From Polytrichum commune (Eukaryota; Streptophyta; Polytrichopsida; Polytrichales; Polytrichaceae), in contig OX485807.1 in assembly GCA_950295325.1 (NCBI GenBank), positions 25,143,666-25,207,665 of the forward strand: a stretch of DNA of 64,000 nucleotides, in the 5' to 3' direction. Position numbers and translations under genes: made by a program. Positions 10,860-62,049 of this stretch are shown in pieces. Within the stretch, counting starts at the first letter, position 1, and every line of letters starts with the position of its first letter. The notes beneath the pieces were generated by a model. That model made no database searches and was not told the origin of the DNA. It worked only from the letters and a program-made list of their open reading frames with translations.

Positions 10860-11715
10860 AAAGGACGTATGGGGAACGTGGGAACGCGGGGGCGGACGGA
10901 GGGAACGAGGGGGCGGACATAGGGGAACTCGGGCGGACGGAAGGGAACGAAGCGCGGACGGGAGGGAACGTACGGGAACATGGGGCGGACGGGAGGGGAA
11001 CGTGGGGCGGACTGGAGGGGAACGCGGGCGGACGGGAGGGGAACGTAGCGCGGACGGGAGGGGAACGTAGCGCGGACGGGAGGGGAACGTAGCGCAGACG
11101 GGAGGGAACATGGGGCGGACGGGAGGGAACGTGGGGCGGACGGGAGGGAACGTGGGGCGGACGGGAGGGAACGTGGGCGGACGGGAAGGGAACGCGGGGC
11201 GGACGGGAAGGGAACGCGGGGCGGACGGGAAGGGAACGCGGGGCGGACGGGAAGGGAACGGGTGCGGACTGGGGGGGAACGGGTGCGGACTGGGGGGGAA
11301 CGGGCGCGGACGGGAGGGAACGGGTGCGGACTGGGGGGAACGCGGTAGGGAACGGGTGCGGACGTTAGGAAACGGGTGGGAACGTGAACGCACGGCGGGG
11401 GAACGTGGGGCGGACGTGAGGGAACTTGGGGCGGACAGAGCCCTCCGCGTTCCCCCTGTCCACCCCCGCGTTCCCCCTGTCCACCCCCGCGTTCCCCCGT
11501 CCGCTCCAGCGTTCTCCCCCCCATTCCCAACCCCTTTCCGCCCCACCCCCGTCCGCTCCACCCCCCGTCCGTCCGCTCCACCCCCCTCCGCCGTCCGCAC
11601 CACCCCCCTCCGCCGTCCGCACCACCCCCCTCTCCCGTCCGCACCACCCCCCTCCGCCGTCCGCACCACCCCCCTCTCCCGTCCGCCCCACCGTCCGCCC
11701 CTGGCCGCCCCACAC
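10860..11715. repeat. GC-rich minisatellite with a strand-skew switch
   Basis: From 10860 to about 11430 the plus strand carries a 21-23 base unit of the form ggacgggagggaacgtgggg, repeated over 20 times. From about 11440 to 11715 the plus strand becomes C-rich, with units such as gtccgcaccacccccctccg (about 22 bases). The two halves are roughly reverse-complementary in composition. Long frames across it on both strands are artefacts of the repeat. It lies about 290 bases upstream of the kinase start. Confidence 0.9.
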
Positions 11716-11909
11716 CCTCCTTAGTCATATTTTTCTACTTTGATTTTAACAGAACCCTAAACACAATGGCAAAATGGTTTACTTGGCAAGGGAAATATGC
11801 ACATCCACGTCGGCGTTTTCTGCCACATAGGACGCCACCTTGGCAAGAAGGTAAGTATTTTACCCACCCTAGTCCATTCCCCCTATGTTGACCCTACGTG
11901 GACCCTATT

Positions 11910-36205: not shown

Positions 36206-36988
36206 TTTCATTATCTATTCAAGGTATATGCCATAGATTCCTCTAAAATGATGGGTAATTATCCTGAAGTCTTGAACTTCAACCGGTTTTCTCTTAAACT
36301 CAATAGGCTCATCTGTACCTAGCGGTCGGTTCTCCCCGTTTTATTGCTTTGCAGCTCCAGTCGCAGAGGATCAAATGTCACGGAGACATATAGAGAGGAG
36401 GTCTGATTGAAGTTCTGCAGGATCTGTTCGACTAAAGACGATCGTAGTTGGTGCCTTGCAAATCCACACGAGGTTACTGTCAGAAAGTGCGTTTACACAC
36501 AACCACCGTTTGTGTGGTTGATGGTTGTAGTTTACTTAATTGGAACTTAATTTGGTTGTATTTTTGAGGTATAATGATAACGATAGAGAAGGTGCATTGA
36601 TGACAACTACAACCACAACTCCTCTTACTTGCCCTATTTCGATATCAGATGTACTTGGGAGTATGTCCAACAGTAATTATGTGTAAACGTGGTTGTGGTT
36701 GAAGGTAGCAGTAGTAGACACTCAATACCAATTACAGCAGAATTTTCGGAGTTCCAGGAGGAAGCTCAAAGGTCACTAGTACAGCTTAACCCTTTAAAGG
36801 CCAAGAAAGCCTCTGATCCGATGGCTTGTCGATCGAGAGTGGAGTGTTATGACGTCTGAACAATTCTACGATTTAAGCTCTGCGGTGTTGCCTTATGAAC
36901 GCTAACAATTGAATTTCAATCGGAGTGACGTGCTCTTAGATCAGGGTGAAGGGACGAATATCTTGAGAAGCTCGACACTGTGACGGCG

Positions 36989-39900: not shown

Positions 39901-41633
39901 CAACTTACACCACCTTCAGCAAATTTTCACCAGCTGCAGGATGGGTTGGATGAGTATCCAAAAGAACTCCACGGAGAGGACAGTGATATAGTTGCAAGGG
40001 TGGTGACAGGACAAGTGGTGGTGGCAAAGAATCCATGTCTCCATCCTGGGGATGTCCGCGTTCTTCAGGCTGTCAATCACCCAGGCTTACGACACATGGT
40101 GAATTGCCTCGTGTTTCCACAGAAGGGCCGCAGGTGCTTAATTTCTTGACACATCATTCATCCTTTGAGCATTGCTTGGTGATTGTGAAACTGGCTTCAA
40201 AGCAGCAGTTAATCTAATATTCTGGACATTGGAAGTGCAGGCCACATCCCAACGAATGCTCCGGGAGTGATTTGGATGGGGATCTATATTTTGTGAGCTG
40301 GGATAGGTCTCTCATCCCACTCAATATGGAGGAGCCGATGGACTACACCCCTGCACCAAGGACAACACTAGACCATCCGGTTACTGTGGAAGCAAGTTTA
40401 ACTGCTCCTTTAAACCTTCTTTGCATCATTGATTCTACTATCATTAGTACTATATACTCCTGCAGCCCACGAAAGGTAACAAGGATGAGCAGTAATCCCT
40501 TTCAAAACCTTGTCTCCAGGTTTGGGTCAGTACCCGTGCTGGCCTGCATATTGATGACCGGTTACAAGATTATATCAAGGATATATAGAGTATGTAACAA
40601 TATTGTGTCTATGATTATATCTGTGCAGGAGCTGCAGGAATTTTTCCTAAACCATTGGCTCAATGACAACCTGGGGCAGATTTCGAATGCACATGTGGTC
40701 CACGCGGATCGCGAGCCACTAAAGGCCAGGAGTAAGAAGTGCATAGATCTTGCCAAATTATTTTCTATTGCTGTGGATTTCAGCAAAACAGGCGTACCTG
40801 CAGTCATAACCCATTCCCTCCGACCAACTGAATATCCTGATTTCATGGAGAAAGAGGATAAACCCACATACCGATCTCAGCGCGTGATCGGAAAGCTGTT
40901 CAGATCTGTGAAAGAGGCAGCAACTCAGAAAGTCCCGGACTTGGATTTGTCAGAAGAATCCATGTCCAAGTACTATGACCAGCAATTACAGGTTTCACCT
41001 TCTAAACCTCAAGCCTCAATGCGAGTCATACATAATATGTGGAGCTCGCCTCATTTGCGGGTTTTGACCAAACTGTGTCATGATATCCAATTTGGGAAGG
41101 GTATTGTGATTATTGAGGATTTGCAAACATATCCACTCGCTATTCAATCTCACCTCACAAGTTCATCTCTGCAGGTATTTGGTTTTGAGGATTACGTGGA
41201 AGAAGCCATTGCGTACAAAAACGAATATGATGTGAAGCTTATTGGACTAATGAACCAATATGGCATAGAGACTGAGGCCGAATTGATGGGTGGCAACATT
41301 TTACGGCTGTCACGGCATTTTCGAAGGCGGGTCGAGGAAGTCAAGAAAAGGATTCATTTAGCAGTTAACTTGCTGAAACGAGAAGCTCGTGCATGGTTCT
41401 TTGGTCAACAGGGCAATGAGGAGGAGGAGGAAGAAGAAGAAGAAGAAGAGCGCCGGGAAGTAGATCACTTTGCCAAGGCTTCCGCTTGGTATCATGTCAC
41501 CTATCACCCTGACTACTTCCATAAAAATGATCAATTTTCTGCGGCCACGAAGGTGAAGTTGCACCTCTTGAGCTTCCCTTGGGTAGTCAATGACATCCTT
41601 TTTGAGATCAAGGGAAATTACACTAGTAACTAG
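36989..41633 (+). CDS. RNA-dependent RNA polymerase (RDR1/2/6 clade), six exons
   Basis: It makes double-stranded RNA from single-stranded transcripts, feeding small-RNA silencing. My exon model is 36989-37525, 37674-39188, 39682-40133, 40241-40391, 40629-40991 and 41175-41633. It gives 1,158 residues, normal for the family, with all phases consistent. The N-terminus has an RRM-like fold (KTFVNNIPFAATVTELITFL, residues 6-25). The core has GKISEDFA, SAFQIRYGGYKGVVAVDP, then AKNPCLHPGDVRVLQAVNHP and CLVFPQKGRR. The catalytic DLDGD (40269-40283, about residue 845) is intact, followed by DLYFVSWD. The C-terminus ends in ASAWYHVTYHP and LSFPWVVNDIL, after a run of glutamates. I chose exon junctions by the known protein pattern; for example, ALLMQ joins IQNPPRVF. 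Intron 4 starts with GCAAGT (a GC-AG intron). Introns 4 and 5 are multiples of three with no stop. No disabling mutation was seen. The exact paralogue (RDR1, RDR2 or RDR6) cannot be settled by eye. Confidence 0.93.
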
Positions 41634-43091: not shown

Positions 43092-44030
43092 CATATATGC
43101 TTATCTTTTTTGGCTATCAACAACTTAGGCACTTGGGACTCATCGCCTTCAAAATGCAAAGACCTCTTCTTATCGCAAAAGTAGGTGATCAAGGTAGTCT
43201 TTTTGTACCTTGCAATGCAATTCATGAAACACAAGAAATAAAATCAAGGGGATTTCACACTAGAGCTTGGAGGTCTATGACCATTAAATTCTAAAATCTC
43301 TCACTGGTAGAAAATGCTAAGATCTTCCCACTTCACTTTACACTAGAGCTTGAGGTCCTAAGGGACCAAAGAGGTTTGAATGGATGAAAAACTTCATGGA
43401 GTCCTCCATGGCATGCAATGGATAATGTTTCATGGTCTACCAAATTTTGAGTCAAGCCCACTTCAAAATAAATGCATACCACATTTGTTGTGTTCTAACA
43501 CTCTAGATTATTCATAAAAAATGAGATATTGTCTAATGACAAAATTATTACAACCACTATCATATAAATTACTGCTAGAAGAGATAGTGTTCCTTTGAAG
43601 CTTTAAGCATCTAAATACCCAAAGTGAGATTTGGAGGATAAACATGCATGTCAACAAGTTCTACCTACACTTGACTTCCATCAACTTCAAGGAATTTCTT
43701 CAAGCATCATGTTTTTGCCTTTTGTGCCCCATAACTAAGACCAAGTGTTGCTGCCATTGTCACCAATAATAATGCATTAGAGAATCAAAGTCTTTCACTA
43801 CTATGACCTTATCAACTAAAATGAGCCAAAATGTCCAATATGAGACAATCCGTACCTTTGGGAACGTGCATTGGGAACGTAGTTGACGAGCAAAATCCCG
43901 TGAATATACCTTAATTGACAATGTTTTTGGAACCACTTGATATAAAAACACATTGTTTCAAACATATTGGTTGATTCACCCGTTGTACCGGGGCACATAC
44001 TGCTGCAGAAACTACACCATAGAACGGGCC
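41634..44030. other. AT-rich intergenic region
   Basis: Strongly AT-rich to about 43.1 kb with no supported gene. From 43.1 to 44.0 kb base composition rises, but only short unrecognised frames occur. The left edge of the palindrome-bearing locus is somewhere at or before 44033; I could not find a terminal repeat. Confidence 0.5.
43054..43100. repeat. (AT)n microsatellite
   Basis: About 13 uninterrupted AT units followed by tacatatacatatatac variants. Confidence 0.95.
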
Positions 44031-44117
44031 AACCACGGGCGAAAGCCCGTGACCAAGGAACACCGCCCAACACATGCGGGAAAATTTCTATAACGAAAGC
44101 TTGACTAACCACAACAC

Positions 44118-44190
44118 ATGCACTACAGTAGGAGATATGCACTACAGACAGAGATATGCACTACAGTAGGAGATATGCACTACAGAAGCC
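44118..44190. repeat. Short tandem repeat, unit gagatatgcactacag
   Basis: Four copies of a 16-22 base unit containing atatgcactacag, beginning after ccacaacacatgcactacag. It lies among the left palindromes. Confidence 0.8.
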
Positions 44191-44801
44191 TGACTGTCCA
44201 AAGGCAGATCAACACAATTGAGAAGCAATAAAGCGCTTGAGAGCAATTGTGCTCTAAAATCAGAGGTGAAATCATAGAAGCCTGTCGCCACTAAATTTTG
44301 GATAAAGAATGTTGCTACATCGCACCACGGGCGAAAGCCCGTGGCCAACCAGCACCACGCAAAACATGCAATTTTAATCCATAGCAATTGCCTAACTGTC
44401 CTAAACCAGACCAACACAACTAGAAGCATAGATGCGCATGACAACGTATATGTAATACATAAATCATTTGTCCAATCACATAAGCCATAAAAGACACTAA
44501 ATATTGAACAAGGTAGAGGGATAAATCTACGCCAGGACGAAAACCCGTCACAAACCAACACAATGTAAATCATGCACATTTTAAACCAACACAATGTAAA
44601 TCACACCAAAGATATGTGCACACAAAGAAGACACTACCATACACATGACTATATTTGTGTCCAAAAATTAATGGTTGAATCATAGATACCACAGTGGGCA
44701 CATCATATTGCAGAGAGTTAAAATATAAATGTACCACGGGCGAACGCCCGTAAACAACCGCTAATACACAGGCGTGTAAATCTATAATCATGAAGGTCCA
44801 C

Positions 44802-45293
44802 CTAAGCACAATAGGAGTATGAATCTTTAATCCTTTGCAATATCTTGTCATGGGGTTCTCTTTGAGCTGCAGCTTGTTGCTTGCGCTTTAGCTCTTCAAC
44901 ACGAAGCTTGTCATTCATCAGAACTGTGGCATCACGAAGTTGCTTCACCCTTGTAGCAATGTAATCAGACATTGATGATGTAGCCTTGGGAGAGCCGCAC
45001 TTCCAACATCCTGAACTACTTCCAGAACCCGTAGGCTCACTAGGGCGAGCGGTTTGGAGAGCAAGTTGTCTCTTCGCCCGAGGGTGCGGCATTGTGACCG
45101 GAGCTTCAACCGCAACCGCAATCGCGACATCACGTGATTGGAGCATATGTGCCTACAAGAACAACATAACGCAATATTATGAAAATCCCCAGGGATAAGA
45201 AACAAATGCAAATGGGCATTCAAATGGCAAATGAATTACCTTAGGACACGGTGACGACACTTCGGCGAAGTCCGCATCAGCATCTGCACCATG
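44802..45293 (-). CDS. Possible 3' exons: small coiled protein with a CxxC motif
   Basis: The 45146-44802 frame encodes a basic, alanine-rich stretch, then SGCWKCGSP and a helical KQLRDA...EELKRKQQAAAQ segment, ending in a TAG. An in-phase upstream exon (45293-45240, reading HGADADADFAEVSSPCPK) joins it across an 86-base intron with CCGACAG and CTTGTAG acceptors and a GTAATT donor. It may be the last part of the large gene upstream (then the TAG at 45757 is either an error or an alternative end) or a separate small gene. One palindrome copy (45530) lies in the interval before it. Function not recognised. Confidence 0.4.
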
Positions 45294-45759
45294 CTGTCGG
45301 GATGGTGGAGTGGAAATATAATGCTTGGCACGTGTATGCAATGGGGAATGTTGTCAAGATAGTTGGATGTTATTGCATAGAAGAGGAACATTATGTGAAG
45401 CACCTTTGTTGGTCAGTGGAAACGTTGTGCAAATTCAGAAACAATTTATGATAGCACAAGGAGTCCCAAATTAAAAACCACAATAACAACTAGGCTGACG
45501 GTAAACGCAACAACTAGTCACAGTGCTTGCCACGGGCGAACGCCCGTGGGACAATGACAGATGAACAACCAGTGATGCAAAGCAGTATAGTCGCATTAGA
45601 TATATTCATGTACATATGACTGTGCCGATACAACAACATTACATAACTTAGGATAAAAAACCAAAACAAATTCATGCATAGTGTGAGTTCCTCATTAGTC
45701 CAATATGCAGTACAAATTGAAAATATGTACACTTCGCCAGAACTTCCTTTGGCTGGCTA

Positions 45760-46542
45760 CATTGGCATCTGCGCCGCTGGAATTCTACGATCCGTAGTCA
45801 CTTCTCTATGTCTAGCCAACGCATTCTTATATATCTGCGAATTTGGTAACTCTAGATTGAAGGGTCCCTGGCCTGATGGATAAGGGTTGCTCCCTACAAA
45901 ATCTGGAACATAAACTTGTGAAGTCAAAAGGTTCTGCAAGTAATTATGGAGAGTATCCAAGCTCTGGTTTGACAGAAAAGGGGGGGGGGGATTAATGTAA
46001 CTCCCTGAAGGGTTTGCTATGCACTTGTAAGGGGAGTCATCAACAAGCAATGTGGTTCTATGAGTGGGTGGCTTCGAATGCGGCAGGGGATGCATCCGAC
46101 TCCACTCAAAAAATGCGCAGAGGTCCTTGATGAAGAAGCTCAACTCAGCATTCACGGGACTGGGTAAACTCTTTCCGCGCTCATCGGCCAAAACTTGACA
46201 CATCTCCTGGCCGAATACATACTCAGGCTGCCTACAACCTTTGAAGAAGTATTGGACAATTGGCTTGAGATTCTTCAGAACCTTGGAGGACCAGATGACA
46301 ACATGGAAGTTTGAAAGCACAAAGCGCAAGAACCGTCCCAATCCCTTCCTGGGAATGACGGCACTATAAGGGAGAAATAGTGGAGCCACTTCCCCACTTA
46401 TTAACGGGCTATGTTGTGCATCAAGTGCCTTCCTGGTGTTGACATTGTCGCACTTTGCGTTCCTCACCAGAATCCCGTTCACATCCAGCACTAACCATAT
46501 CTTCTCTCTCCGGTGAACAACTGTACTTGGAGAGGTGGGGAT
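45760..46542 (-). other. FCP1/NIF-type HAD phosphatase domain with altered DxD
   Basis: The exon begins IPTSPSTVVHRREKIWLVLD and continues VNGIL, then VVIWSSKV, and TLLVDDSPYKC about 145 residues later. These match the HAD/FCP1 motifs (DxDGT, W-S/T-S, DD). The first Asp nucleophile is present but the second Asp of DxD is Asn. The family removes phosphate from the RNA polymerase II tail or similar targets. With Asn at the acid/base position this copy is probably a pseudo-phosphatase or binding domain. Confidence 0.6.
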
Positions 46543-48121
46543 CTGGCGATGACAAAATCGAAAGTCATTCTAATGGATTCTCATCTAACGAAACAATATT
46601 ATGGTTAGATATAAGTATAGCATACATAAGAGGGCAAAGTAGCTACGCAATCAATTAGTTAGGCGAAATCTAGCAGAATCCCGTACCGTCACTGGCACTT
46701 GATCCTCCAATGAGCGACCTGAGACAAAATCCACAAACAAAGTTCATGAGTACGTAGGCAGAAATCATAGTGTAGACCTTTACTTGAATGAAATGTAAGC
46801 CAACCTCTATGAAGGTAAATATTATAGCATACCTTCAGCTCGAGGGCCCGGTGAACTTGAGGCAGCGTCGGGACGGACAGGGGAACTCGCACGATGATCA
46901 CGAGGGCTTGAGGACCCAGCAGCTCCAACATGGACTTCACGGACGGGAGATTCCTGTGCTCCGCTAATGTCAATAACCTCCAGCGTAGAGTCAACAACAC
47001 TCTGAGCTTGCCCAGCAGCGGCTCCCTGACCTTGACCTCGTCCTGGACGTTCTGGTGGGGCATCGAAGAATGTCCACCTCTTTCGCATTTTCTTCAACGA
47101 AGCAGCATGGAGGATATGCTTGAACTTCACAGCTGCACAAAACGCTGGCGTGGAGAGATACGCAAACATCTTGTGATAGTCATAGGACTTGTACATGTTG
47201 CTCAGGTTCAAGCGCACATTCTCCGGAACCTCCGACAAATACTTGTCCACGAAAGGCGCAAAATGGACCTTGTCCTTCTCATCTGACTCCTTGCCCTTGC
47301 CCTTGTCCTTGTCGGATGCGTTCGGTGGAGGTCTTGCCGCAAAAAGGGGGTGAGGATCATCAGCAAAGCTTAGTTTCACCCTGCTGTACCCAGGCTTGCC
47401 GTAGTCCTCGTCCTCCGAGTCGTCTGTCATATAATCGGCAAACGTTCCCCGAACACGATATGGAACAGGGTCTTTCACCTTAACCCGCACATCCATATCA
47501 ACACGTCTCTGGGGCATATCATCATCGCTGTCCAGGCAAATGACCTCTGTCCGGATGACCGTCTCTTTTTCTCCTGAAGCCGAAGCAGCTGCAGGTTCCT
47601 CCTCAACCGCGGCTACAGAGGGCTCCACATTTGGACGCGCTTGTCCTAGGACCTCTAGAACCGCCGCAGCAACCTCTTCCACAGGTGAGGACACGTTCAA
47701 ATCTGATCTCTCCCCACTCACCAATTGGGTATCCATGATAGTATCGATTACATCATCAACATTGTCAACCTCACCTTCATGAACAGCGCCAGTCTCGCCC
47801 TCGTCATCGCGGCTAGATTGTCTTATATCCTCCGAAGAGCGAGATGCTTCTCCACCCCTAGGAGCTCGCAGAGATTTTCGTCGGATAGCCTTAACCTTCT
47901 TTCGAGCAACCGGCTTCGATGTAAACCTTGGAGCATGTATCTCATGTTCCCGAGTATCACTTGGCGTTTGCTCTTCTCCGATTTCCTCATGCTCCCGACT
48001 TTGTCGGGAAGCCTCAAACGGCTGAAATCCGCGCCCCGGAGTTGGCGGGATACCAGATGTATATGATGACCCAGGGGGCTGAAGGCTCCTCTCTGAGGGA
48101 CCTCCCTCTCCCTCAACAGGC

Positions 48122-48239
48122 CCCACGGGCGATCGCCCGTGGGAGGGACCTCCCTCTCCCTCAAAAGGCCCCACGGGCGATCGCCCGTGGGAGGGACCTC
48201 CCTCTCCCTCAACATGCCCCACGGGCGATCGCCCGTGGG
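48122..48239. repeat. Three palindromes inside the coding sequence, 48-nt period
   Basis: Perfect 22-base palindromes (half-site CCCACGGGCGA then its reverse complement) at 48122-48143, 48170-48191 and 48218-48239, exactly 48 bases apart. On the minus strand they encode a 16-residue repeat around GPSHGRSPVG. These copies have the symmetric GATC centre. Confidence 0.95.
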
Positions 48240-48539
48240 ATGGACCTGCATCCCCCTCATCCTCATCCTCATCATCTCCCAGCTCTTGCAATGGAGCTTC
48301 AGGGGGAGCACCCTCATCATCATAATCATCTCCCTCATCATGGCCTTCCTCGTGCTCCTCTTCACGAGGATCCTCGTCAACCTCCTCCTCATTAACCTCA
48401 TCCTCCTCGTCATCAAGCACCACCTCATCAATCTCCTCTTCATCCTCCTCCTCTTCATCGTCCTCCTCTTCGATATCGTTGGCACGTTTGCTTCTCCTCT
48501 CGCGATCAATATCCTCATCCTCGCTGTTGTCTCCCGAGT

Positions 48540-48850
48540 CCTTCCCTTCTTTATACCACCTTTGTAGGCTCCAGTCAACGGCCGCCAACATTCTTGCCTT
48601 TGCCGTGCCAACGACATCCACAGGAACAATGTTCACGACCTTCATACCCAGCGCCTGCAAAAATAAGATAAAATAAATTTAGAAATGGCGGACATATACG
48701 TAATTCATGGTCATTGTTGGAAAAACGAATATGAGTACATAATAAGGATACAAAATGTGAATTCTTACATGTGCGACGATATGAGCTTTGTTTCCACCGC
48801 AAACATTCAAGAAAATTGTCCCTTCCAGACAGGAAGGCTTGATGATGTCA
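48540..48850 (-). other. Methyltransferase-like motif I spanning an intron
   Basis: The stretch IIKPSCLEGTIFLNVCGGNK joins, across the intron 48655-48768, to ALGMKVVNIVPVD and a helix KARMLAAVDWSL. This has the layout of the C-terminal motif I of beta-class N4/N6 DNA methylases (KP, hydrophobic strand, G-x-G loop, LGR-type strand, acidic residue). The loop CGGNK is degenerate and a DPPY motif is not convincing (only LDPPPRY much earlier). Treat as a possible, probably inactive methylase fold. Confidence 0.35.
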
Positions 48851-50127
48851 ATGTACGTCTGCATCCTGAGCTCCCCCTTGAAAATGGATCTTGACGCCTC
48901 ACTGGCATAAGCCCTCTTCACTGAATATCGCTTGTAGTCTCGGGGGTCATGCATGTCCAACATCTTCCTCCCGCCGCAAATCCGTACTGCTACCTCTTCG
49001 GTTGACTCCCCTTTTTTGGGGAAAATGCAAGTCGTTACCCTCAAAGAACTATTCCGGTAAAAGCAGCCCTGCGAAGTAAGTTTCTCCCCACTGCATCCTC
49101 TGTACAAGGCTTCACAAAACCTCACATTGTACGGGAGATACGCCTTCAACACATTGTGTATAAAGTGTCGATCAGGATACTCCGACACGACAGTCCACAA
49201 TTGTGGGGCTTGTAGTATTCCAGGGAGGTCCCGACGAAGACCTTGCAGAGTGCCTTCAACAATCTCCTTCACACGGAAGCCACTGTCCACTCCGTACCTA
49301 ACTCCAAGAAGAAACCTCGTGTCCATGAAAACATGGGTTATTGGAGCAAACGTTTGTCCCTCAGCACTAACCCGAAACTTGTTGTCTATAGACAACACTG
49401 TGTGCTCCTCCAACACTTCCCTAACCCAAGTGCTAAGTATATTGTTCACTCCCTCCATAAATCGTGCAGGAATCGGCACTTTCTTCTTGGCGGGATTCAA
49501 AGCGGCAGCTAGGTAATCCGCTCCCAGTAGGTCCAGTAGTCTTTCCCTCTGCAGCCGTCCAAAATTGTTCGTCTCCTTCCATGCATGCCATTCGTCGTGG
49601 TCAATAGTGTTATTCTGATCAACTTGAATAACATAACGTGGGGGGGGATCTAAACATTCCGCCATCGCAATATATGTTTCGTTCTTCTTCTTCCTATTGT
49701 ATGCCCACTCACCAATTGTCTTCAAGGTATGGCGGGGATACTCTTCACCTTCTCTGGTGACCAGACATTAATCCGCTGCCATGTCAAGCTTCACCTCTGT
49801 CAAGCCGCGAGTGTGCTTCATGTCGTTCTTCACAACACTTTTGGGTTTAAAACCCTTCTTCTCCTTTGCCAACGCCAGGGTTTTCTTGTCTATATACTTG
49901 CCTCTCTCAAAATCCATGAAAATTCGCTCTCACTTTCTCCAGAGTTCGTCACCCAACGTCAGGAAGATGTGTTCCATTATCAAATTGGATTCCTTCTCCA
50001 CACGGAAGGTCCACATGAGGCACGTGGTGAATTCCTTCCATTTCCTGAACGCTTCACTGTTGGTTGCACTCTCCCGGTTTGTTCGAGGCGGCTTTCCTCT
50101 TCGAATCCACGTCTTCCTTGCGTGCTA

Positions 50128-50640
50128 TATGCACTCCACCCATGTTGGATAGTGCTTTCTATATTCACTATCCAAGTTTAGAACACCAGAAAGATGGAAC
50201 AAAGGATCATCATCACCTTCAGGAGCCCATACCACATTGCATGGCCATCGAGAAAAAAAATTCTTCACCTCCGGAGTGCTCTCTGGGTCATTGACGAACT
50301 CCAGGCAGGCAGCCAACGTGTGTTGTCCATTAACCACATGGAATCTCTTGTCTTCGACCTCCTCAAAACTTCCTGGCTTCGAACTTCTATCTGCTGGAAC
50401 GATGGTCAAAAAGTTCGGATGGTTCTTCTGCATGAACGCAAAATTGAAGAGCCACGTCTTCATCTCTCTCAAATGCGCCTCTGATATGGGTTGACAATTG
50501 TATCCCGCATCTCCCCGCTCAACATTTGCGATATTTACATATCCAGAGACACCCTCGCCAAATATAAACACTCTACTGTATTTCTTCATAAAAACCTCCA
50601 AGTCCATCAACCTATCTCCAACAGATTTATCCGGCGGCCC
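50128..50640 (-). other. ParB/sulfiredoxin-like domain segment
   Basis: Within the giant gene, VVNGQHTLAACLEF resembles the ParB-family box II (G-x-H-R/T with a following helix). It is preceded by a segment with YVNIANVERGDAGYNCQPISE that could hold box I. In bacteria this fold binds CTP or DNA partners and is sometimes fused to DNA methylases. The match rests on this motif only. It ends at the TAG at 50125. Confidence 0.45.
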
Positions 50641-51433
50641 ACTCTTCGACTTCTTTGGAATCTTCTCCACCTCTAGGAAAGGACTAGGATCACTTGGCTT
50701 CTTCTTTCCCTTCCTTTGATTCTCATCTTCTTCGGGATTGTCCTGTACAGTCAAGTCCAGGACGTCATCCTGTCTTGCTTTCTTCCTCGTTGCCGCCTCT
50801 CGAACCTCATCTCCTGCCTTTCTCTTGCCTTCACGGATTTGCTTCTTCTTCGATAATGCCTCCAGCCTTGATGCCTTTGCCTCCTCCACTATAACCTGCA
50901 CCCTGCGGAGAGCAGCTTTGTAGTCCTACTCGATCATGAATGCTCTCTCCTCTTGGGTCTTTGTGTGCTTGTTTGTCTCGCCGTAGATGATACAATAAGT
51001 TAGGAAGTCGCCATTCGTAGACTTGATATTCTCTCCCTCATGATTTAGCTCTTCATTGACATCTTCATATGCGAACGAGTCCACATAGCCAACAACCTTG
51101 AAATCCTTCTTTCGCTTTGAAGACTTGCACATTATCATAACCCTTTTTCCATCGGCTTGAAGGTCCAACACGTGCTTTGCTTTCATATATCTCCTCCATG
51201 TAGTATCAATCTCTGTTTTGGTGTACAATGACAACACCGTTGTCTCCCCAAAGCCACTATATTGCATGAACCACTTGACATTCTCTCCCAAATCGACTAT
51301 GTCCCAGGTCACTGTCCTGGACATTCCACCGGACACTGCGTACAAACAAATGGACATGTTAATACCCTAGGCAAGTCGATGCTTTCGACTATCTAGAAAC
51401 ATATCGAGTCTGTCTTAGGTGCCGTTGTCCTAC

Positions 51434-51464
51434 CTTTTCGAGCAGTCTGCTTCGTTCTTGCCAT
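51434..51464 (-). other. First exon encoding the histone H3 N-terminus, with splice donor
   Basis: The ATG at 51464-51462 has a good context (gcgATGGC). It is followed by codons for ARTKQTARK and then a donor AAAG|GTAGGA. The acceptor tttgtttgtacgcag precedes 51335, 98 bases downstream. The join gives MARTKQTARKVSGGMSRT in the same frame as the long downstream exon. Histone H3 begins MARTKQTARKSTGG, so 12 of the first 14 residues match. The K4 and K9 equivalents are kept; S10 is V, T11 is S and K14 is M. The exon is too short for ordinary gene finders. Confidence 0.85.
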
Positions 51465-51683
51465 CGCTCATGAAAAGAAGGATTTCAGTTCAAAACGTCT
51501 ATGTACCTGAATGAAACAAACACTGTCTATTTTAAGTTCTGCACTATACTGCACATTTCCAAAAGAGAAAGGATGATTTCATTTCCTACTGTTAACCATA
51601 TATTTGCTTGTTATATAGCCCATATAGAATGGCCAAATAGAATGCCTCTACATTATAAGATGCCTCTACATTGTGTTACAAGG

Positions 51684-52434
51684 CCCACGGGCGATCGCCC
51701 GTGGGAAGTCCTTGTCATTTGTCTCTGCAAACCAAATCTCTGGTTGCAAGGCCCACGGGCGTTCGCCCGTGGGCAGTGACCTTGCCAACCCCCTTTGAAT
51801 TCTTAGTTCCTAGATAGGTTCTTTCATACAAGGCCCACGGGCGTTCGCCCGTGGGCCTTCCCCCTTTCCTTTTCTAATTCATTCATCTATCTAGTATTCT
51901 AATTCACTCTCATTCTTTAATTCATACTATCTGTCTAATTTTCTTCATACTCATATTTCTCTCAAACATTTATCTCTCTCAAACACATATTTCTCAAAAA
52001 TATATTTCTCAAACACGTACTCCTATTTTCTCAAACACATATTTCTCTCAAACATACCCACTTACTTCTCTCAAACATTCTTATCTTTTATTCATACTCG
52101 TATAATGATTCTCATATGAGAGTTTCATTTTTTACTCACATCTATCTTTAATTCTATACCTCTATTATTTCTCTCATTCATTCCCATTTTTAATTCATAT
52201 TTATACTCTACCTAGTTTCCTTCATACAAGGCCCACGGGCGTTCGCCCGTGGGCCTTCCCCCCTTCTAGTTTTCAATTCATACATCTATATAGCTGTCTC
52301 ATTCCTACTCAAACATTTATTCTCATTTTTAATTTATACTACCTAATTAGTTTCCTCCATACAGGGCCCACGGCCGATCGCCCGTGAGGCAGCCCCACTT
52401 CTCGTTCTAGAGCCCACGGGCGTTCGCCCGTGGA
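51684..52434. repeat. Right array of palindromic repeats (GTTC-type centre)
   Basis: Copies lie at 51684-51705 (GATC centre), 51752-51773, 51834-51855, 52232-52253 and 52413-52434 (all GTTC centre), and 52367-52388 (GATC centre, imperfect arm). At 51834 and 52232 the symmetry extends to 30 bases (aagg...cctt). The array sits upstream of the H3-tail exon. The asymmetric copies are in the opposite orientation to those of the left array. Confidence 0.92.
51860..52350. repeat. Low-complexity CT/AT-rich sequence between palindromes
   Basis: Irregular repeats of ttctctcaaacat, attctcatttttaattcata and similar, with no coding potential. Likely the 5' untranscribed or leader region of the minus-strand gene. 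Confidence 0.7.
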
Positions 52435-52773
52435 GCTTGATTTTCTACATGACAAACAAATTGACCCTTTTCACACTGCCACCACAAATATCCACTATTA
52501 GAATTGGAACTCACCAGGTTTCCTTGGTGGGGTCATTGCAATTGCTCTGCAATGTCAATAGAATTGCCTGCACACAAGGAAATCAAAAGCATATGTGTGA
52601 AACAAAGTGAACAAATTCAATCAACTAACCCAATTATCAACTTCAAAACCCAAATTGAGCACAATGCAGACCTTTCTTCACTCCAATAATATATGAGTTT
52701 GGCTAATCATGTCTTCAATAGATGATCACATAGCCACATTCAGACCTTCATTCACCTATGCATTTATAACCTG

Positions 52774-53180
52774 ATTGAAGAGAATCCTACAAAAAAACAC
52801 TTTAGGTTTGATTCCATTGACGACAACAATGGCCTACATGGAAAAGAAGGAAATATGGAGAATGCAGCAAACACATGAGATCAACAATCTGGCCACTACA
52901 AATAAATATTCATCAAACAATGTGCCAGAATTTGTGGGCACATTCAAGAATCAATAACAAGCAAAAAGCAAGAGTGGAGAAAGATACATAGAGTGGGCAA
53001 TGCAATTGAGGAAAGGGAATGGGAGCTCATTTCAGATTGTGGCTAAAGACATGCATTCATACCCTTATTGTAGAGAATCCTACAAAACAACACTTTAGGA
53101 TTGATTCCATTGAGGACACCAATGGCGCACATGAAAATGGAAGAAACATGGAGAATTCAGCAAACAAAGGAGATCACTGG
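52774..53180 (+). repeat. Direct duplication about 295 bp apart
   Basis: Segment 52774-52885 (gagaatcctac...cactttagg.ttgattccattga...) is repeated at about 53070-53180 with about 85 percent identity by eye. The intervening sequence is not obviously repeated. Confidence 0.75.
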
Positions 53181-53439
53181 GACAATACCAAGCAAAAAAC
53201 TTCCAAGAATCAATACCAAGCAAAAAAGAAGAATCAATGGAGCAATTTCGCCTCCTACACTCATACCAGATTGCAAAGAATAGGTGAAATTCTGTTGAGT
53301 ACTCACCTTAATTGGATTGAAGGAGGTTTGATGGAGAGTTTGGGACTGCAGAAAGATGCAATGAGTGGGAAATGGGAATTGATGCCAGACTCTTCCAAAT
53401 GTGCCAGAAATGTAACCACAGAAAAGGGTGTGAGCAATG

Positions 53440-53900
53440 GAATATGGAGGGAAGAGGTTCTGACCCAAAGGGTGCGACCCAAACGGCGAGGAGGGAAAGA
53501 GAAAGAGAATGAGAAATAGAAAGACAAAGAAAAAGACAAAGAGAATTCCGGCGATGGCGCCTGAGAGGGAGTGAGGGATGGAGGAAGGAGCCAGGAAGGA
53601 AGAGAGGTGAGTGAGGGGGAGGTGGGAGACGAAACGAGGGCATTGTTGGCGGAATTCAATGCATGTTGGGAGGAATTCATTGCATGGTGGGAGGAATTCA
53701 ATAATGGTCCGAGAGCATTGAAGGCGCCTTGGGAGGGAGGGAAAGAGAAAGAGAGACGGAAGAGGCTGGAGGGAGAAGAACAAAAGAACAAAAGAACAAA
53801 AGAAAAGATGGGTGGGAGAGGAGATGGATGGGAGGGCCATGGAGGGACGTGAGGGAGATGAAGGGACTTGAATATGACGGCCGAGGTACACGTCCTCCTT
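53440..53900 (+). repeat. Purine-rich (GA) tract
   Basis: The plus strand is dominated by A and G (gagggagg, agaagaacaaaag units; aaagaacaaaagaac repeated). Long frames on both strands reflect composition, not genes. Confidence 0.8.
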
Positions 53901-54104
53901 GCGATTGGACCTACGATAGGCCATCATGTGAAGTGAGCCTACATGCCCACTTCACTATTCATCATTGGAAGAGAGCCTACATGAGCACTTGAGTTGGGAG
54001 TTGCCTGTATGTTCAAACCCAATGTAAAACCCAATGGGAACAACCTACAAGAACAAACATACAGGATGTGAAACCCAATGGGAACATGATATGAACCAAC
54101 ATGA

Positions 54105-54172
54105 ACCAATATATGTATATATGTATATGTGTATGTGTATGTGTATGTGTATGTGTAAATGTGTATATATAA
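54105..54172. repeat. (TATG/TGTA)n microsatellite
   Basis: tatatgta units followed by five tgtatg hexamers. Confidence 0.9.
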
Positions 54173-55437
54173 TAAAAAATGACATAGTATCTTCAGTGAC
54201 TACAATATAAGTATCTTCAATCACATAGTATCTTCAATCAATATAAGTTATTGATAGAATCTTAAAAGACATACTTTATTCAAAGTTTTTGAAAGACATA
54301 CTTTAACATGCTCCAAAAGACAATCCCACCCTCCTTTGACAACAAAGTTTGGAGTTGCTAACCCTTTGCCATCCAATGAGGCCTAAAGGATAAAATATAA
54401 CTCACCCGTTCAAATATGACCCCCAACTATCTTGATTTACCCAAATAGTATAATAGCTAGTTTGGACTTTAAGGAACATGACATAAACCACGTGATTAAA
54501 GATAACACAAACATTTAAATGTTGAACCACCCTAATAAGTGACATTGGTGTCCAATGTTCATGGTATTTCGTGTCATGTGCGCTATTTGTGAAGGGCCTA
54601 TACTAGCAATTTTAGATGCCAAGGGCAATTTGATTGATTGCCATGACCCCTAATTTTGCATTGGACCTACCAATGTTTGAGGGGCTCCTCACAATATATA
54701 GTAGACCATGCCATGTAGGTTTTGCATACCACTTGAAAGTCTAGTAGACTTTTCGTCTAGTAGACTATTCTGAAGCACAAAATACAAATAATTAACCACA
54801 TTAAGATTTGAGCAATACAATGAATGTGGCTTGCATTGATTTTCTATTGAAAAATAACTTCAAACAAATAGTAATGTAAATCATTATCATAGTAGTGGTA
54901 ATGTTTCTTGCACACACTTGTATGTCAATCACCTAATATACTAATTCATTTTGCTTCTAGTAATGGACCCCAAAAGTAGGGCGTGAATTTTTACTACCCA
55001 AGATGTGTTATTACACAATATTTCCAAGTGTTTCTTGACAACATCAATAAAATGGGGTCTCATGGTCACAACTAGTATTATCTTATAATACCCATTGTTG
55101 TTCATAAAAACAATTGAAGATGGGGAAAGATGTTATTTCATCACCCCTGGGCCAATAACTAACACATGACCCATTTCCATGTATTAAACATGTACTCAAT
55201 ACTGAAATTGTGGTTAGCAACACTCAAGGTTGATTATGTTTTTAAGATGCACCCATGGCATTGTGGACCCATAACATTAGTGGAATCCGAGCCAATGATT
55301 TGTTGGACCGACAGTGAATTTAGAAAGTGCGTGCGAACCTTCCATGATGGTGGGAGTGGCCGGTCTGATTTTTGGGCATAATCGGTCAACATCCCAATGT
55401 TTCCAAGTCCAGCCGGTTCCACAATGTGATTGTTTGG

Positions 55438-55470
55438 TTTTAGGGTTTAGGGTTTAGGGTTTAGGGTTTG
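55438..55470 (+). repeat. Interstitial plant telomere repeat
   Basis: Four tandem TTTAGGG units. About 80 bases downstream (55545-55562) the reverse form aaccctaaaccct appears, so short telomere-like tracts face each other. Confidence 0.92.
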
Positions 55471-56092
55471 GCAAATACATGAATTTTAATTTTTAAAATA
55501 ATAACCATAAAAACACCACACAAATATATGACCCTATTACATTTAACCCTAAACCCTATTAGAATTAACATTATTTTACATTAATATTTGGCATCGCACG
55601 ATGTACTGTTATTCCATTGGGCAATTCAAATGTATTACTTATGAGTTCATAATCACTCATGTTGAAAAGGTTGTTTGGACGTTTAGGGCCTTCACTTATT
55701 TGTGTGAATAGGTGTGAAGCTAAGAATAACCCACCCCCCCCCCCATAGGTAGAAAGAGAGTGTGTAGAAAAGATTGGACTTATATGTGCTCAAATATGGA
55801 CATTAGGTAGGTTTAGTACTTAAGACATATGTAGAGACTTTGTAAGCGCTTTGGCTTTTCAATAATTAAAGGTTGACCAAGTAATCATTGTGAAAGATTG
55901 ACATGCAAATAGATAAATAGCATCACCAACTTCTTATGCAAGTGAGCAAATGTAAATAGAGAGTCTCTTCACATGTAGGTGTTTACTGCCTTTTGGTGGG
56001 GAACTTTGTGACCGTGGCTTTATGAATGGTTTTGTATCTTAGGTAGGGATTGATTAGATGGGACATTTGGGGAGAGGTCTTGGTGAGAGGTT

Positions 56093-57186: not shown

Positions 57187-60100
57187 CTAATACTGTGTTC
57201 CTTCGTTTTCTTCTTCCCCACGAACATCCAACGGGGCTGGGATGTGCATGCCGCCGTCCGTTGTGGGCTCTCTAGTGGGCTCTACATCTTGCATTTGTGG
57301 TTGTAAACCCACAAAGTCAGCATCGTGGCCGACATCGATTATGCGCGGTAAGGTCTGGTTGGTTTGTAGTTGCCCACGTCTACCCCTCACGTCCGTGCGA
57401 CATACAACCTTCCATCCTGGCCTCGTCGGGTCATTGGAGAAAAATACTTGTTGACAATGCAATGGAAATGCAAAAGAGTTTGAGTGCACTTTGCCATCCA
57501 TGCGGTTGAAGTTCGCAACGGTGAAACCATATTGATCCCGTGTGATGTTAGGGTGTCGAGGATCTGCACTTGGGCGAACCCAATCGCACACTAGCACAGT
57601 GGTGCAATGATTTCGGTAGTCTAGCTCCAAGATCTCTTCGATGTAGCCCACATACTCCTCGGTTGTCTCTATGGGTCACCCATTTCTCAAGCCCCATGGT
57701 ATTTGTCGTGTAAATGAGGCCACCACACATGAATCGCGCGTGACGAGGCCACCCTCAGTACCTCGTACTCGGAAGTGCATGCCAAACGCATACATTTTCC
57801 GGTGTGAGATTGCATATCGCTCGGGAGGTTGCGCGTATTGCGCAACATCGACGTCCACAACTTCACCGGAGGAACGCTGACGTGACAGACGCGACGTCAA
57901 CCATGTTGCAAAGGGAGGAAGATCGTGTAGTTCCAACGGATACCGCACTGCCAAAGTTGGATGCCGGCGGCGACACATTTTCCGAAAGGCCTCCCTTTCT
58001 TTCCAACGCGAAACTCTAGTTGCCATAAACTCCCTGCACAAGGTTGTGTGCCATTAAATTGTGGTTAGAAATGGCCCTTGCATGTATATAAAGGTGATGC
58101 AAAAGTGTGATGGCCATCATCTGCAATATCACATGTGACGCGTATATCTAAGAAAGAATGTCATTTGGGACATCATGTCCAACACATCCTCATGCACTGC
58201 TGCATGTCACAGTTGACATGGCACAGGTATTTTGCATTGGGTGACAGTATATATCATCGAGGCTTGAAGTAAAGTAAGTATGGGTTCCACTAACTCTCTG
58301 CAACGCTCCAATGACGACGCACTGTCCAAAACAAAAGCGTGCGCATAGTTGCGGAATTCGTCGGACATCTTTCGCTTTTGTTGTGAGTTGCAACGGAGAA
58401 TCTCATCGTTCATGGTTGCATCCTCTTCAGCGTCCCATACACGATGTGTAGTTCCTCTGTATTGATGCATGTACTCCGTGCAAAAACCAAGCGTGTCGTC
58501 CATTTGATAACCTTCCGCTATGCTACCCTCCGGATGTGCAAATGTTCGAACGTAATCTTTCAACGTTTTCATGTACCGTTCTATGGGATACATTCATCGA
58601 CAATGCACTGGACCGCACGTGTACAATTGCTCCACCAAATGGACGGGAAGATGCGTCATGACATTCATAAATGTGGGAGGGAACTCCTTCTCCATGATGC
58701 ACGTCGCCATCACCACATCCAACATTGTACCCTCCTTGTCGCCTCTCTTCACCTCCTTGGCGCATAGTCTCTGAAACACTCTACTCAGTTTGATAATAGC
58801 TATGCGCACGCTTTCATCCAATAGGTTGCGTATAGCCACTGGAAGAATCTGGAAGACATGTATTTAGAAAGTCAGAGAACGATTGTGTCGCGTCCCCCTG
58901 GACATCAGACAGAACATCTAGGAGCGTCATGAAGAACATGGAGTGCGAGAACAATTTGAGGATAACGTCCCCCAGGATGTTGACGCGTCAACCATGTTTG
59001 GAATGAGGTCTCAGTAGACATCATGTGGTGTGTGCCTATACTCCTATGACACATTGATACATTGTATTACAACATTGACATCCCTGAGGGTGTCCTTCTT
59101 GACTTGCCTGTTGCATGAGAACATGGTAGTCGTGCGTTTTCATGTACTGCAATTTCCCATCCGCTAGGCGCTTGTAAATGCTACCCACGTAGTTTGTGGG
59201 GGTGCGAATATTGGAGACAATTCCAACAAACTCCGCGCGTTCATGTGGCCTAAAAACATAGGAAGCGTGCGGCATATAGTACCCATCCTGTGGCCGCCGT
59301 GGGGGTTGCAACCATATCTCTTCGCGTATTCCCAGGTCCTCCGCGTCGACCCTGCTTCCAGGACTATCATTCATTCCAAACAATGTCTTCAACAAGTTCT
59401 TGCACAAATTCTTCTAACAATGCATAACATCGAGGATGTGACGCTCTAGCAGGTGCTGCACAAGACACATGGGCAATTTCAGACACATTGCCAGCACTTT
59501 CATGGACACATGCATGCCTCGTCTATCCGTATGAGCAAAGCTGGTAATCATCATGGCCTGAAGCGTTAGGTCAGATGTCTTGGTGGACATCATTACAAAC
59601 TACGTGACCGAGACGGACGTCGCGATGTCCACTTCAACATCTGTGGACAGGATGTGCAAACATTAATTGTTATACGGGAATCACCTGCCAGTATTCCAGC
59701 TCGAACAACGCACTAAGTCTTTTGACGCCTGTGACATGCACAGGATCGTTGGGTCCGTTCTCTCTCCCGCCCATTTGTAGGTATGAATCGCGCCAAGCTG
59801 CGTATCGAATGATAACATCCCCCGACATTGGTTTTGGCCTAGGACGTTCCTCTTCCTCCCCATTGAATCTCCTATTCCGGCGATACGGGTGGTGACGGGG
59901 TAAATAACAACGAATGCCGCTGTAAACAATTTTGGTGCCCCTAATGCTCCGATTTGGAAGCATGTCTCCGGTTTTTGCCATCCTCGCATCGGTGTTTGGT
60001 CCACAACAAGGGCACCCCTTGTAGCCCTTACAAGTAAGACCAGAAATGAGGCCGAAAGCGGGAAAATCGGAAATGGTCCACATAAGTATGGCACGCAAAG

Positions 60101-61442
60101 TGAAAGTGCGACTCCCTTGTGGTTGGGAGAAATCTAAAGCCTCAACACCATGCCAAAGCTCTTGTAGCTCCTTAAAAAACGGTCGTATAAACACATCAAT
60201 GTTTGAAGAGGACGGCGACTTCTTCCCGGAAATCAATATACACAACGAGATTAAAAACTTTTTGGTCACCAACCATGGCTCGAAATTGTAAATCAAAATC
60301 AATACCCGCCACGTCGACCAGTTGGTGTTGTTTAGTTTAAAAGGATTCACTCCGTCCAAAGCGAGAGCCAGTCTCATGTTCCTATCGTCACGCCCAAAGT
60401 TGCCAAACGCGACGTCATTGTTGATGTGCTTCCATGCAGGGCTGTCAACCACAGAACGCATGATGTCATCACTGCTGACGTGTTTGGTGTGACCTGTCAA
60501 TAGACGTGCTATCTCAGACGAGCGCCACATCCGTTTCAACCTAGAAATTAGGGGAAAGTGACGGATTACTCTTGCGGGAATGTTGTTGCTACCATCCAGC
60601 CATCGTCGCGCCGTGCACTTGGGACATAAATCATGATTTGCATATTCTTCGTCATATAGAATACAACCATTGGGGCATGCATGGATATTGTTGTAGGTTA
60701 ATCCAAGTCGACGGATGCTCTTCCGAGCCGCATAATGAGTTTTGGGCAACTTGTTGGGCATTGGTAACAAGTCTCCAGACAAAAATCGGAACAACTCATC
60801 GGTAAATGTATTGCTCACACGGAACACCGAGCACATGTTCATTATGATGATCGTGGCGGACACAACACTCATTTTTGAACCCGGGTACACTGGAGTCGTG
60901 GCTTCCGTATACAAACCATCCAATTCACCTTCGATGTCGCTGTCTTCCTCGTTCTCCATATGCAAACGTCCTTCAGCTACGGCCTCTTCGTGGAGTGCAT
61001 CCCCTCTGCCCAGTGCCTCCAGCACCTGACGTTCAACTTCATGGAATTCATCCAGGAGGGATGGGGGAAGTGCCCCGTTGTCGGCGTCCACGGGTTCAGG
61101 TAATGTGTTCGAAGGGATGTCTTCTACAACGTCGTTGTCACAACAGATGTCCTCCACCCACATTCCAGACGGTGGGTATCCATCGACGGGGTCACCGCCT
61201 AGTAAAGACTTGGTTAGAAATGGATCACGGCCAACTGCCGCGTGGTGTTGCCGTATAACTTGTATGGTTTTTCTGCGTCCACCCTTGCAGTCTTTGTAAG
61301 GACATCTAAATGTGTGCACATTGTTCTCTGTCGCCACGCGGAGCTCCGTGTGAAGTATCAAATCCCCTATTGGCACGTGACGAAGTGTGCGTCCATTGTC
61401 CGACAAACGAATGGTTGCACCACGACGCACAACCGAACCCAT
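57187..61442 (-). pseudogene. CACTA (En/Spm) transposase, TNP2 type, with three nonsense codons
   Basis: It would cut and paste the CACTA element. Exon 1 (61442-59685, 586 codons) starts MGSVVRRGATIRL and has a zinc-finger-like CPYKDCKGG. It continues with the TNP2 core (RLALALDGVNPF, GCPCCG, YLPRHHPYRRNRRFNG). Exon 2 (59557-59108) has HLLERHILDVMHC, then a TAG at 59414-59416 inside a normally conserved stretch, and ends KTHDYHVLMQQ. A GC-AG intron (59107-58849, starting GCAAGT) joins it to ILPVAIRNLLDES. The DUF4218 part (58848 to about 58210) holds a TGA at 58594-58596 where the family has Trp before MYPIERY. The DUF4216-like part (58041-57187) carries a TGA at 57676-57678 with the frame continuing into YVGYIEEILELDY. 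No frameshift was seen in these segments. It is not functional as it stands. Confidence 0.88.
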
Positions 61443-62049
61443 GTTGCGTGTCCCGAATTGGAAGATGTTACCTCACTGGGCCGATGTTACACACCCTGCA
61501 GCGCTTCCGCAAGGTCTCCGCGTGGTCGTGTTGCGCATGAGCATTGATATAAACAGAGGACACCATTCGTTGATACTATGCGGAGTGTCTCTTCCAGGGT
61601 GGATGTCATTGAGAATGTCCATGGGGACATTGCTGTTGATCTGTCGGCGTCAATTGTGACATCTTCCTGGACACCAAAATGAAGGTCACACACTACACGG
61701 CAGTGTGTTCCATACACACCCACGTGAAGGATTTGACTGCTGCAGAACATCGAAACCACAATGGTCACGTCGATGACCTGGATCTTTCATTCCCGCACAC
61801 AATGGGGAGCGCACAGTGTTCGAATTAAGCACATGTCGCATTGGGTGTCTTACATGACGTCCAAGAAAACACTGGTATCTACGACGCCAGTAAAAAAACA
61901 ATGTAACTGACCTTTTCCCACGTGTCCTAGAGGGTATTCCAGGCAGTGGATGCCCCAGAGGACCCTGAGAAGGCTCGCCGACATTCTCTAAACCCTAAGT
62001 GTTGCGGCTTCACCTTTGTACGCTCATTGCTTGAACATCCCTTAGTAGC

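What the first reader, a model, noticed from the sequence alone, without database searches (positions are those of the whole stretch)
51336..51464. A TE-like giant gene whose product begins with the histone H3 tail
The 31-nt first exon encodes MARTKQTARK exactly and splices in frame (98-nt GT-AG intron) to VSGG, giving 12 of 14 matches to the H3 N-terminus. K4, K9, R2, R8 and T3 equivalents are retained. The rest of the protein is not a histone. An H3 tail at a free N-terminus could bind H3K4/K9 readers, writers or erasers and tether the protein or its DNA to chromatin, or decoy silencing. I know of histone mimicry in pathogens and in some cellular proteins, but not in a plant element of this architecture.
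Basis: partly seen in the sequence, partly recalled or inferred. Interest (0 to 1): 0.95.

Follow-up and report, generated by a model that had tools for sequence, protein, structure and literature searches.

The report
Jumping gene wearing histone H3's tail
A repeated, mobile DNA element in this plant genome encodes a large non-histone protein whose first ten amino acids are the start of histone H3, a feature kept in most copies examined, which suggests that the element imitates the cell's own chromatin label.

Summary
Exon 1 (51464-51434, minus) encodes MARTKQTARK and joins in phase, over a 98-nt GT-AG intron, to VSGG. It is not a quirk of one copy. In the window's own genome (408 Mb, seven large contigs) 57 copies found through exon 2 alone keep a start of exon 2; exon 1 lies upstream in 54 of them: 37 read MARTKQTARK, 13 MARTKQTTRK, 4 other variants. 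K4, Q5, R8 and K9 are unchanged in all 54. Outside residue 7 (A or T) codons change mostly silently while intron 1 diverges. One metagenome homologue, 82% identical to its nearest compared copy, has the exon too. One young subfamily has 20 further copies, 98-100% identical, that share a 3' end: a mobile element. A stop in frame precedes the ATG in all 10 representatives checked, so the tail should be a free N-terminus. The window copy itself is broken. The rest has a PH-like fold (modest match), an acidic stretch and an NIF-phosphatase-like domain, but no known transposase. Best explanation: an H3-tail mimic that engages H3K4/K9 readers or enzymes. Retention is shown; partner and benefit are inferred. 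My seven literature searches showed no report of such an element.

The parts
51434..51464 (-). Exon 1: ATGGCAAGAACGAAGCAGACTGCTCGAAAAG, MARTKQTARK plus the first base of the next codon
   Evidence: present in 54 of 57 copies
51336..51433 (-). Intron 1, 98 nt, GT-AG, phase 1; 97-108 nt in the 44 of 47 copies (this one included) where the acceptor was located; sequence diverges strongly between subfamilies
51465..51511 (-). Leader: TGA in frame two codons before the ATG, and an acceptor-like TTCAG whose G is 51507
   Evidence: same layout in the 10 representatives (TTTAG in L073)
48764..51335 (-). Exon 2/3 coding part: VSGG, PH-like domain, long helix, basic linker, NGQHT-motif region, middle region; four in-frame stops in this copy (broken); 3' limit approximate
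   Evidence: PH-like fold; copies without stops exist
46822..48663 (-). Next coding part: GMKVVNIVP..., long acidic stretch, C-terminal region; limits approximate
   Evidence: partly collinear with L084 and P0032
45757..46599 (-). NIF (FCP1/SCP-like) phosphatase domain exon; LDVNG in place of DxD
44802..45152 (-). Possible last exon / small ORF, in the same order in subfamily B
43803..56092 (-). Repeat unit that carries the gene: left (3') end near 43800; right (5') end not found. At 56093 an unrelated CACTA element interrupts it
44325..52433 (.). Ten 20-bp palindromes CCACGGGCG-NN-CGCCCGTGG (starts 44325, 45530, 48123, 48171, 48219, 51685, 51753, 51835, 52233, 52414; the one at 44325 imperfect), all inside the unit
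   Evidence: 0 in 100 shuffles

Best explanation
This is the first coding exon of the main gene of a high-copy mobile element of unknown class (at least 13.3 kb in subfamily B, a nested 1.3-kb repeat included). It gives the element's large protein a free N-terminus identical to the H3 tail (after removal of Met: ARTKQTARK, or ARTKQTTRK in some lineages). The tail works as an H3 mimic: it is bound, and probably modified at K4 and/or K9, by the host's H3-tail machinery (PHD/CW readers, K4 demethylases, K9 methyltransferases). It either holds the protein on chromatin or draws that machinery towards or away from element DNA. SHOWN by sequence: exon, phase, splice sites, retention in 54 of 57 copies, mostly silent change outside residue 7, stop in frame before the ATG, mobile copy pattern. 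INFERRED: expression, the joining of later exons into one protein, Met removal, binding, modification, benefit to the element. V in place of S10 would remove the phospho-switch next to K9 (recalled H3 biology).
For: Exact tail far beyond chance. Copies found through exon 2, not through the tail, still have it: 54 of 57. R2 is K in 2 and T6 is I in 1; K4, Q5, R8, K9 never change in the 54. Outside A7 there are 7 silent and 0 replacing changes on internal branches, against 53 and 47 in exon-2 codons 6-60. Intron 1 keeps place and phase while its sequence diverges. In one representative each of subfamilies B, C and D exon 2 has no Met before residue 24, so exon 1 should supply the start; a stop lies in frame just upstream in 10 of 10 representatives. 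P0015, at most 82% identical to the 41 loci compared and so from another genome or lineage, starts MARTKQTARK and reads through intron 1 into VSGG. 20 of 21 non-self matches of the B query end within 24 bases of one point, 15 at exactly the same base, at 98-100% identity.
Against: No transcript, protein or binding data. Counting all codons, exon 1 is not more constrained than exon 2 (Fisher p = 1.0). Residue 7, which HP1-type readers need small (recalled), is Thr in 15 of 54 copies, including young copies with few changes, so classical H3K9 reader binding may not be the selected function. Of the 78 metagenome protein records returned by 3 searches only one contains the tail; the others start downstream, probably because intron 1 is seldom open and in frame, and are uninformative. 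The copies with no stop were not checked over the whole gene.
Confidence: 0.62

Rival explanations
1. Passive capture: the element once picked up the first codons of a host H3 gene as a start-codon exon; the peptide has no H3-like function and persists by descent.
For: The sequence is plainly of H3 type. With A7 included, constraint on exon 1 equals the rest of the gene. A7T, A7S, R2K and T6I variants exist.
Against: 11 silent against 3 replacing changes outside A7, dN/dS 0.088; under neutrality at most 3 of 14 has p = 3e-5. Exon 2 has diverged to about 72% protein identity between subfamilies with an identical tail, and introns further. The two intron-bearing H3 genes read, L007 and L008, have their intron after K23, not K9, and no 5' flank is shared with the 13 H3 genes compared, so no H3 exon was copied with its borders, as far as these show.
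Confidence: 0.2
2. The exon is kept for a general reason (start codon, basic N-terminus, N-terminal acetylation or nuclear import) and the H3 identity is convergence.
For: The tail is short and basic.
Against: Identity over 10 residues, with 3.5e-5 occurrences expected per genome; uncharged T3 and Q5 are also kept in all 54 copies.
Confidence: 0.03
3. A host gene family amplified by duplication, not a mobile element.
For: No transposase, integrase or reverse transcriptase domain in the gene parts scanned; terminal repeats and target-site duplication not shown.
Against: Copies on all seven large contigs; a young subfamily at 98-100% identity whose similarity stops at one common 3' point; subfamilies of different age and decayed copies.
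Confidence: 0.08
4. A special case of the best explanation (its probability is part of that one): the tail is a decoy against silencing that soaks up H3K9 methyltransferases or readers so that the element escapes heterochromatin.
For: K9 and R8 unchanged in 54 of 54; V10 cannot be phosphorylated.
Against: A7T in 15 of 54 copies would be expected to weaken chromodomain binding (recalled); nothing tested.
Confidence: 0.2

Closest known systems
Histone H3 N-terminal tail
   Same: Residues 1-10 with Met identical; free N-terminus predicted; GG at 12-13
   Different: S10 replaced by V, no K14, no histone domain found; the tail is a separate exon, whereas two intron-bearing H3 genes of this genome split at K23
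SNAG-domain repressors (GFI1, SNAI1), whose N-terminus copies the H3 tail to hold LSD1 (rows and abstract starts; details recalled)
   Same: A short H3-like peptide at the extreme N-terminus of a larger nuclear protein
   Different: SNAG peptides only resemble H3 (recalled); here the match is exact over ten residues and the carrier is a mobile element
Histone mimics of viruses and of EZHIP and G9a (EZHIP paper PMC6513997 seen only as abstract start; others recalled)
   Same: Borrowed histone sequence used on histone enzymes
   Different: Those are internal or C-terminal motifs (recalled); here a dedicated first exon at the N-terminus
Chromodomain LTR retrotransposons (abstract starts of PMC3350952 and PMC3605345)
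   Same: Mobile elements that engage the H3 tail
CACTA (En/Spm) elements
   Same: Plant DNA elements; one is nested beside it in the window (56093 onwards, tnp2 at 59670-61472)
   Different: No conserved CACTA ends on the H3-tail element and no tnp2 domain in its gene

Membership tests
Histone H3 | N-terminal tail ARTKQTARKSTGGK | tested here: met
   10 of the first 10 residues, 12 of 14; differs at S10, T11, K14
Histone H3 | Histone fold domain | tested here: not met
   No Pfam histone match in any coding part scanned
H3-tail mimic (SNAG-like) | Mimic at a free protein N-terminus | tested here: met
   Stop in frame before the ATG in 10 of 10 representatives; by sequence only
H3-tail mimic (SNAG-like) | Binds an H3-tail enzyme or reader | not testable with these tools
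   needs biochemistry
CACTA DNA transposon | CACTA terminal inverted repeats | tested here: not met
   CACTACTATGACC at window 43796 looked like one, but the C4 copy reads CATAACTATGACC there, subfamily B ends differently, and the genome count (32+42, up to 2 mismatches) equals the reversed control (41+30). The 5' end is not known
CACTA DNA transposon | tnp2 transposase in the element | tested here: not met
   tnp2 (PF02992) of the window lies in a separate nested element; none in the gene parts scanned
LTR or LINE retrotransposon | Reverse transcriptase in the element's gene | tested here: not met
   No RT, RNase H or integrase Pfam hit in the gene parts scanned
NIF / FCP1-SCP phosphatase | NIF domain above Pfam cut-off | tested here: met
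   PF03031 38.4 and 43.4 bits, cut-off 21.8
NIF / FCP1-SCP phosphatase | DxDx(T/V) catalytic motif | tested here: not met
   LDVNG in the window copy and in a subfamily-B copy; motif recalled
ParB / DGQHR-like DNA-binding proteins | ParB-like domain | tested here: inconclusive
   VNGQHTLAAC resembles it by eye; Pfam, NCBIfam, PHROGs, PADLOC and PDB sequence-profile searches gave nothing clear; the model of that part was mostly below pLDDT 50
PH-like superfold | Barrel plus C-terminal helix | tested here: inconclusive

The most novel reading that the evidence does not exclude
A new kind of nuclear selfish element: its large protein shows the host's chromatin machinery an exact H3 tail, and through a DNA-binding part reads the element's own 20-bp palindromes, whose two arms differ together between subfamilies. 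It would be a tail-plus-site tethering or partition system comparable in logic to ParB-parS, or a way to write or erase chromatin marks on element copies.
Probability: 0.12. Interest if true: 0.96.

Novelty: new variant of a known kind. Interest (0 to 1): 0.88.

Why it matters
Histone mimicry is known from viruses, bacteria and a few cellular regulators (recalled). A mobile element whose dedicated first exon is the H3 tail would be molecular evidence that elements imitate the substrate of the silencing machinery, not only evade it. Because young copies carry A7 or T7 tails on nearly identical proteins, nature supplies a ready comparison of which H3 readers matter. The case can be tested with peptides and existing plant chromatin reagents.

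Tried and rejected
CACTA identity for the H3-tail element: proposed from CACTACTATGACC at 43796 and an 11-nt inverse match at 54897; rejected. Right (5') end: at 54772 the unit joins a repeat Y that also occurs without it (L082, L083); in subfamily B 22 of 46 match rows, self included, span the whole fetched 3.9 kb. The 5' end was not found. A7T by methyl-C deamination: T7 copies L045, L052, L055 have only 4-7 substitutions in exon 2 (L046 10, L054 29), so this is not a convincing cause. H3-gene capture by shared flanks: none found. An exon 1 in the remote family L081: none recognised in the 1.07 kb upstream held. A methyltransferase-like reading of the middle region: model (mean pLDDT 47.8) and searches inconclusive. 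Alignments A5 and A6 were misaligned; neither was folded, A7 was. Organism: seven large contigs, plant-type RDR gene, TTTAGGG repeat; I suspected a Polytrichum-type moss from recalled chromosome number, and one literature search gave no support.

Census bookkeeping: one search scored 96 of 842 first-look candidates and printed 99 matches, so 57 is a lower bound. I counted rows with query start up to 37; rows with later starts and 24 remote matches (23-27% identity) were dropped. Of the 54 exon-1 sequences 47 were read with their GT donor; 7 were read only from the listing, which does not show the donor. Of the 3 without: L072 is destroyed, L076 has none in 0.6 kb, and L063 is interrupted by an LTR-like insertion just before exon 2, so its exon 1 may lie in sequence I did not read. 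A last search for all variant spellings with the donor did not complete.

Full report
1. The observation. On the minus strand, 51464-51434 reads ATGGCAAGAACGAAGCAGACTGCTCGAAAAG (MARTKQTARK plus one base), followed by a 98-nt GT-AG intron and by exon 2, VSGGMSRTVTWDI.... Twelve of the first fourteen residues equal histone H3. The expected number of coding 30-mers for MARTKQTARK under the window's dinucleotide composition is 5.5e-9 in the window and 3.5e-5 in the genome. A stop in frame lies two codons upstream of the ATG.

2. It is a family. A metagenome search with a query joined from window ORFs gave 46 homologues, 59-98% identical where they overlap. One of them, P0015, begins MARTKQTARKGITTVP and reads through an in-frame intron into STVSGGMSRAV. 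P0015 is at most 82% identical to the 41 loci of the window's genome that I compared, so the exon is probably present in another genome or lineage. No other of the 78 records returned by three searches contains the tail.

3. The whole genome. The window lies at C5:25143666-25207665 of a 408-Mb assembly. The exact 31-nt exon occurs at 4 places; all synonymous spellings of MARTKQTARK occur at 54 places. Of the 30 fetched as loci, 17 continue with G|GT (element type) and 13 with S-T-G-G (histone genes). Of the other 24, 20 sit beside exon-2 matches and 4 look like H3 genes by codon usage.

4. Census through exon 2. Searching with exon 2 alone gave 99 matches, with 96 of 842 first-look candidates scored. 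57 copies keep a start of exon 2. Of the 30 returned as loci, 29 have exon 1 in place. Of the other 27, 15 are in the exact list; I fetched the remaining 12, and 10 of these have a variant exon 1, one a destroyed one and one none. Together 54 of 57: 37 MARTKQTARK, 13 MARTKQTTRK, 2 MAKTKQTTRK, 1 MARTKQTSRK, 1 MARTKQIARK. The GT donor was seen in 47; in 7 the exon is known only from the listing. The 30th locus, L063, is interrupted by an LTR-like insertion before exon 2, so its exon 1 may exist further upstream. K4, Q5, R8 and K9 are unchanged in the 54.

5. Selection. On a tree from exon 2 (47 copies), exon-1 codons 2-10 show 13 silent and 14 replacing changes; 11 of the 14 are at residue 7. 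dN/dS is 0.36 for all nine codons (below neutral, p = 0.009) and 0.088 without residue 7; exon 2 gives 0.31 (codons 6-60) and 0.43 (codons 6-430). With residue 7 included there is no difference from exon 2 (p = 1.0); without it p = 0.03, or 0.015 on internal branches. Leaving out residue 7 is a post hoc choice, the numbers are small and the tree is poorly resolved among young copies. Intron 1 keeps its position and phase at 97-108 nt (44 of 47 copies, acceptor not located in 3) while its sequence diverges strongly between subfamilies.

6. The tail is at a free N-terminus. In 10 of 10 subfamily representatives a stop in frame lies shortly before the ATG, downstream of an acceptor-like TTCAG (TTTAG in L073); in one representative each of subfamilies B, C and D exon 2 has no Met before residue 24. 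Removal of Met before Ala is expected (recalled), which leaves Ala1 as in H3.

7. It is mobile. A subfamily-B stretch (L084, C1:48471100-48480000) matches 21 other places; 20 of 21 end within 24 bases of position 6619, 15 at exactly 6619, at 98-100% identity, on C1-C5; the one truncated match lies on C7. Upstream, 22 places (self included) match the whole 3.9-kb L085. So the unit is at least 13.3 kb in B, a nested 1.3-kb repeat included. In the window, subfamily A runs from about 43803 to at least 56092, where a CACTA element with a tnp2 gene is nested in it. Terminal repeats, target-site duplication and the 5' end are not determined.

9. Palindromes. CCACGGGCG-NN-CGCCCGTGG occurs ten times in the window, all in the element, none expected. 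In the fetched A and C copies both arms carry CG; in B and D both arms carry TG/CA; mixed forms are rare (1 of 12 in L039, 1 of 11 in L041; none in L084, L042, L057, L021). The remote family L081 has another palindrome, CTTTCACTCGATCGAGTGAAAG. This looks like a set of sites for a dimeric DNA-binding protein, or hairpins; untested.

10. Interpretation. An exact H3 tail, kept through subfamilies that share only about 72% of exon 2, at a free N-terminus, in a mobile element, is best read as a functional H3 mimic (0.62). Which partner it meets is open; Thr at residue 7 in 15 of 54 copies speaks against a simple HP1-type K9 reader as the only target and leaves K4-side readers and demethylases, or R8-K9 enzymes. 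The main rival is passive capture (0.2).

11. Literature. MARTKQTARK occurs in 3 held papers, none on mobile elements by title. I saw no report of an element-encoded H3 tail; the library lacks most subscription journals and bioRxiv preprints.

Noticed in passing
44325-52433: Ten 20-bp palindromes CCACGGGCG-NN-CGCCCGTGG confined to the element; in other subfamilies (L084, L042, L057, L021) both arms differ together: CCACGGGTG..CACCCGTGG. Some lie inside coding exons.
   Followed up: partly
L081 (C3:1969500-1974500): A remote relative (24 matches of 23-27% identity) with a similar two-ORF layout, a phase-1 acceptor before GG-M, its own palindrome array, and no H3 tail recognised in 1.07 kb upstream.
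   Followed up: partly
56093 onwards, tnp2 at 59670-61472 minus: A CACTA element (CACTATAAGAAA...) nested in the H3-tail unit; its end has 23 further matches at 98-99%.
   Followed up: no
36950-41633 plus: RDR6-type RNA-dependent RNA polymerase gene (RRM, RDR6_2nd and RdRP Pfam hits) in the same window.
   Followed up: no
L063, C1:67910208-67914503: An element copy in which an LTR-like insertion ends just inside exon 2; the element's 5' part continues at C1:67903906-67907821.
   Followed up: partly
54772-56092; L082, L083: A repeat of more than 3.6 kb (Y) that flanks the upstream side of subfamily-A copies and also occurs without them (7 further rows at 98-99%).
   Followed up: partly
L045, L046, L052, L054, L055 and L065-L075: Residue 7 of the tail is Thr in 15 copies, young and old alike, with no clear cause; young A7 and T7 copies are otherwise nearly identical in exon 2.
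   Followed up: partly
10880-11717: GC-rich arrays of about 21-22-bp units in a window otherwise mostly 35-50% GC.
   Followed up: no
1-6081 and C1:33092239-33098243: A stretch of the window, apparently part of an LTR retrotransposon, is 98% identical to one inserted in the 3' part of the C1:33.08 Mb copy of the element.
   Followed up: no
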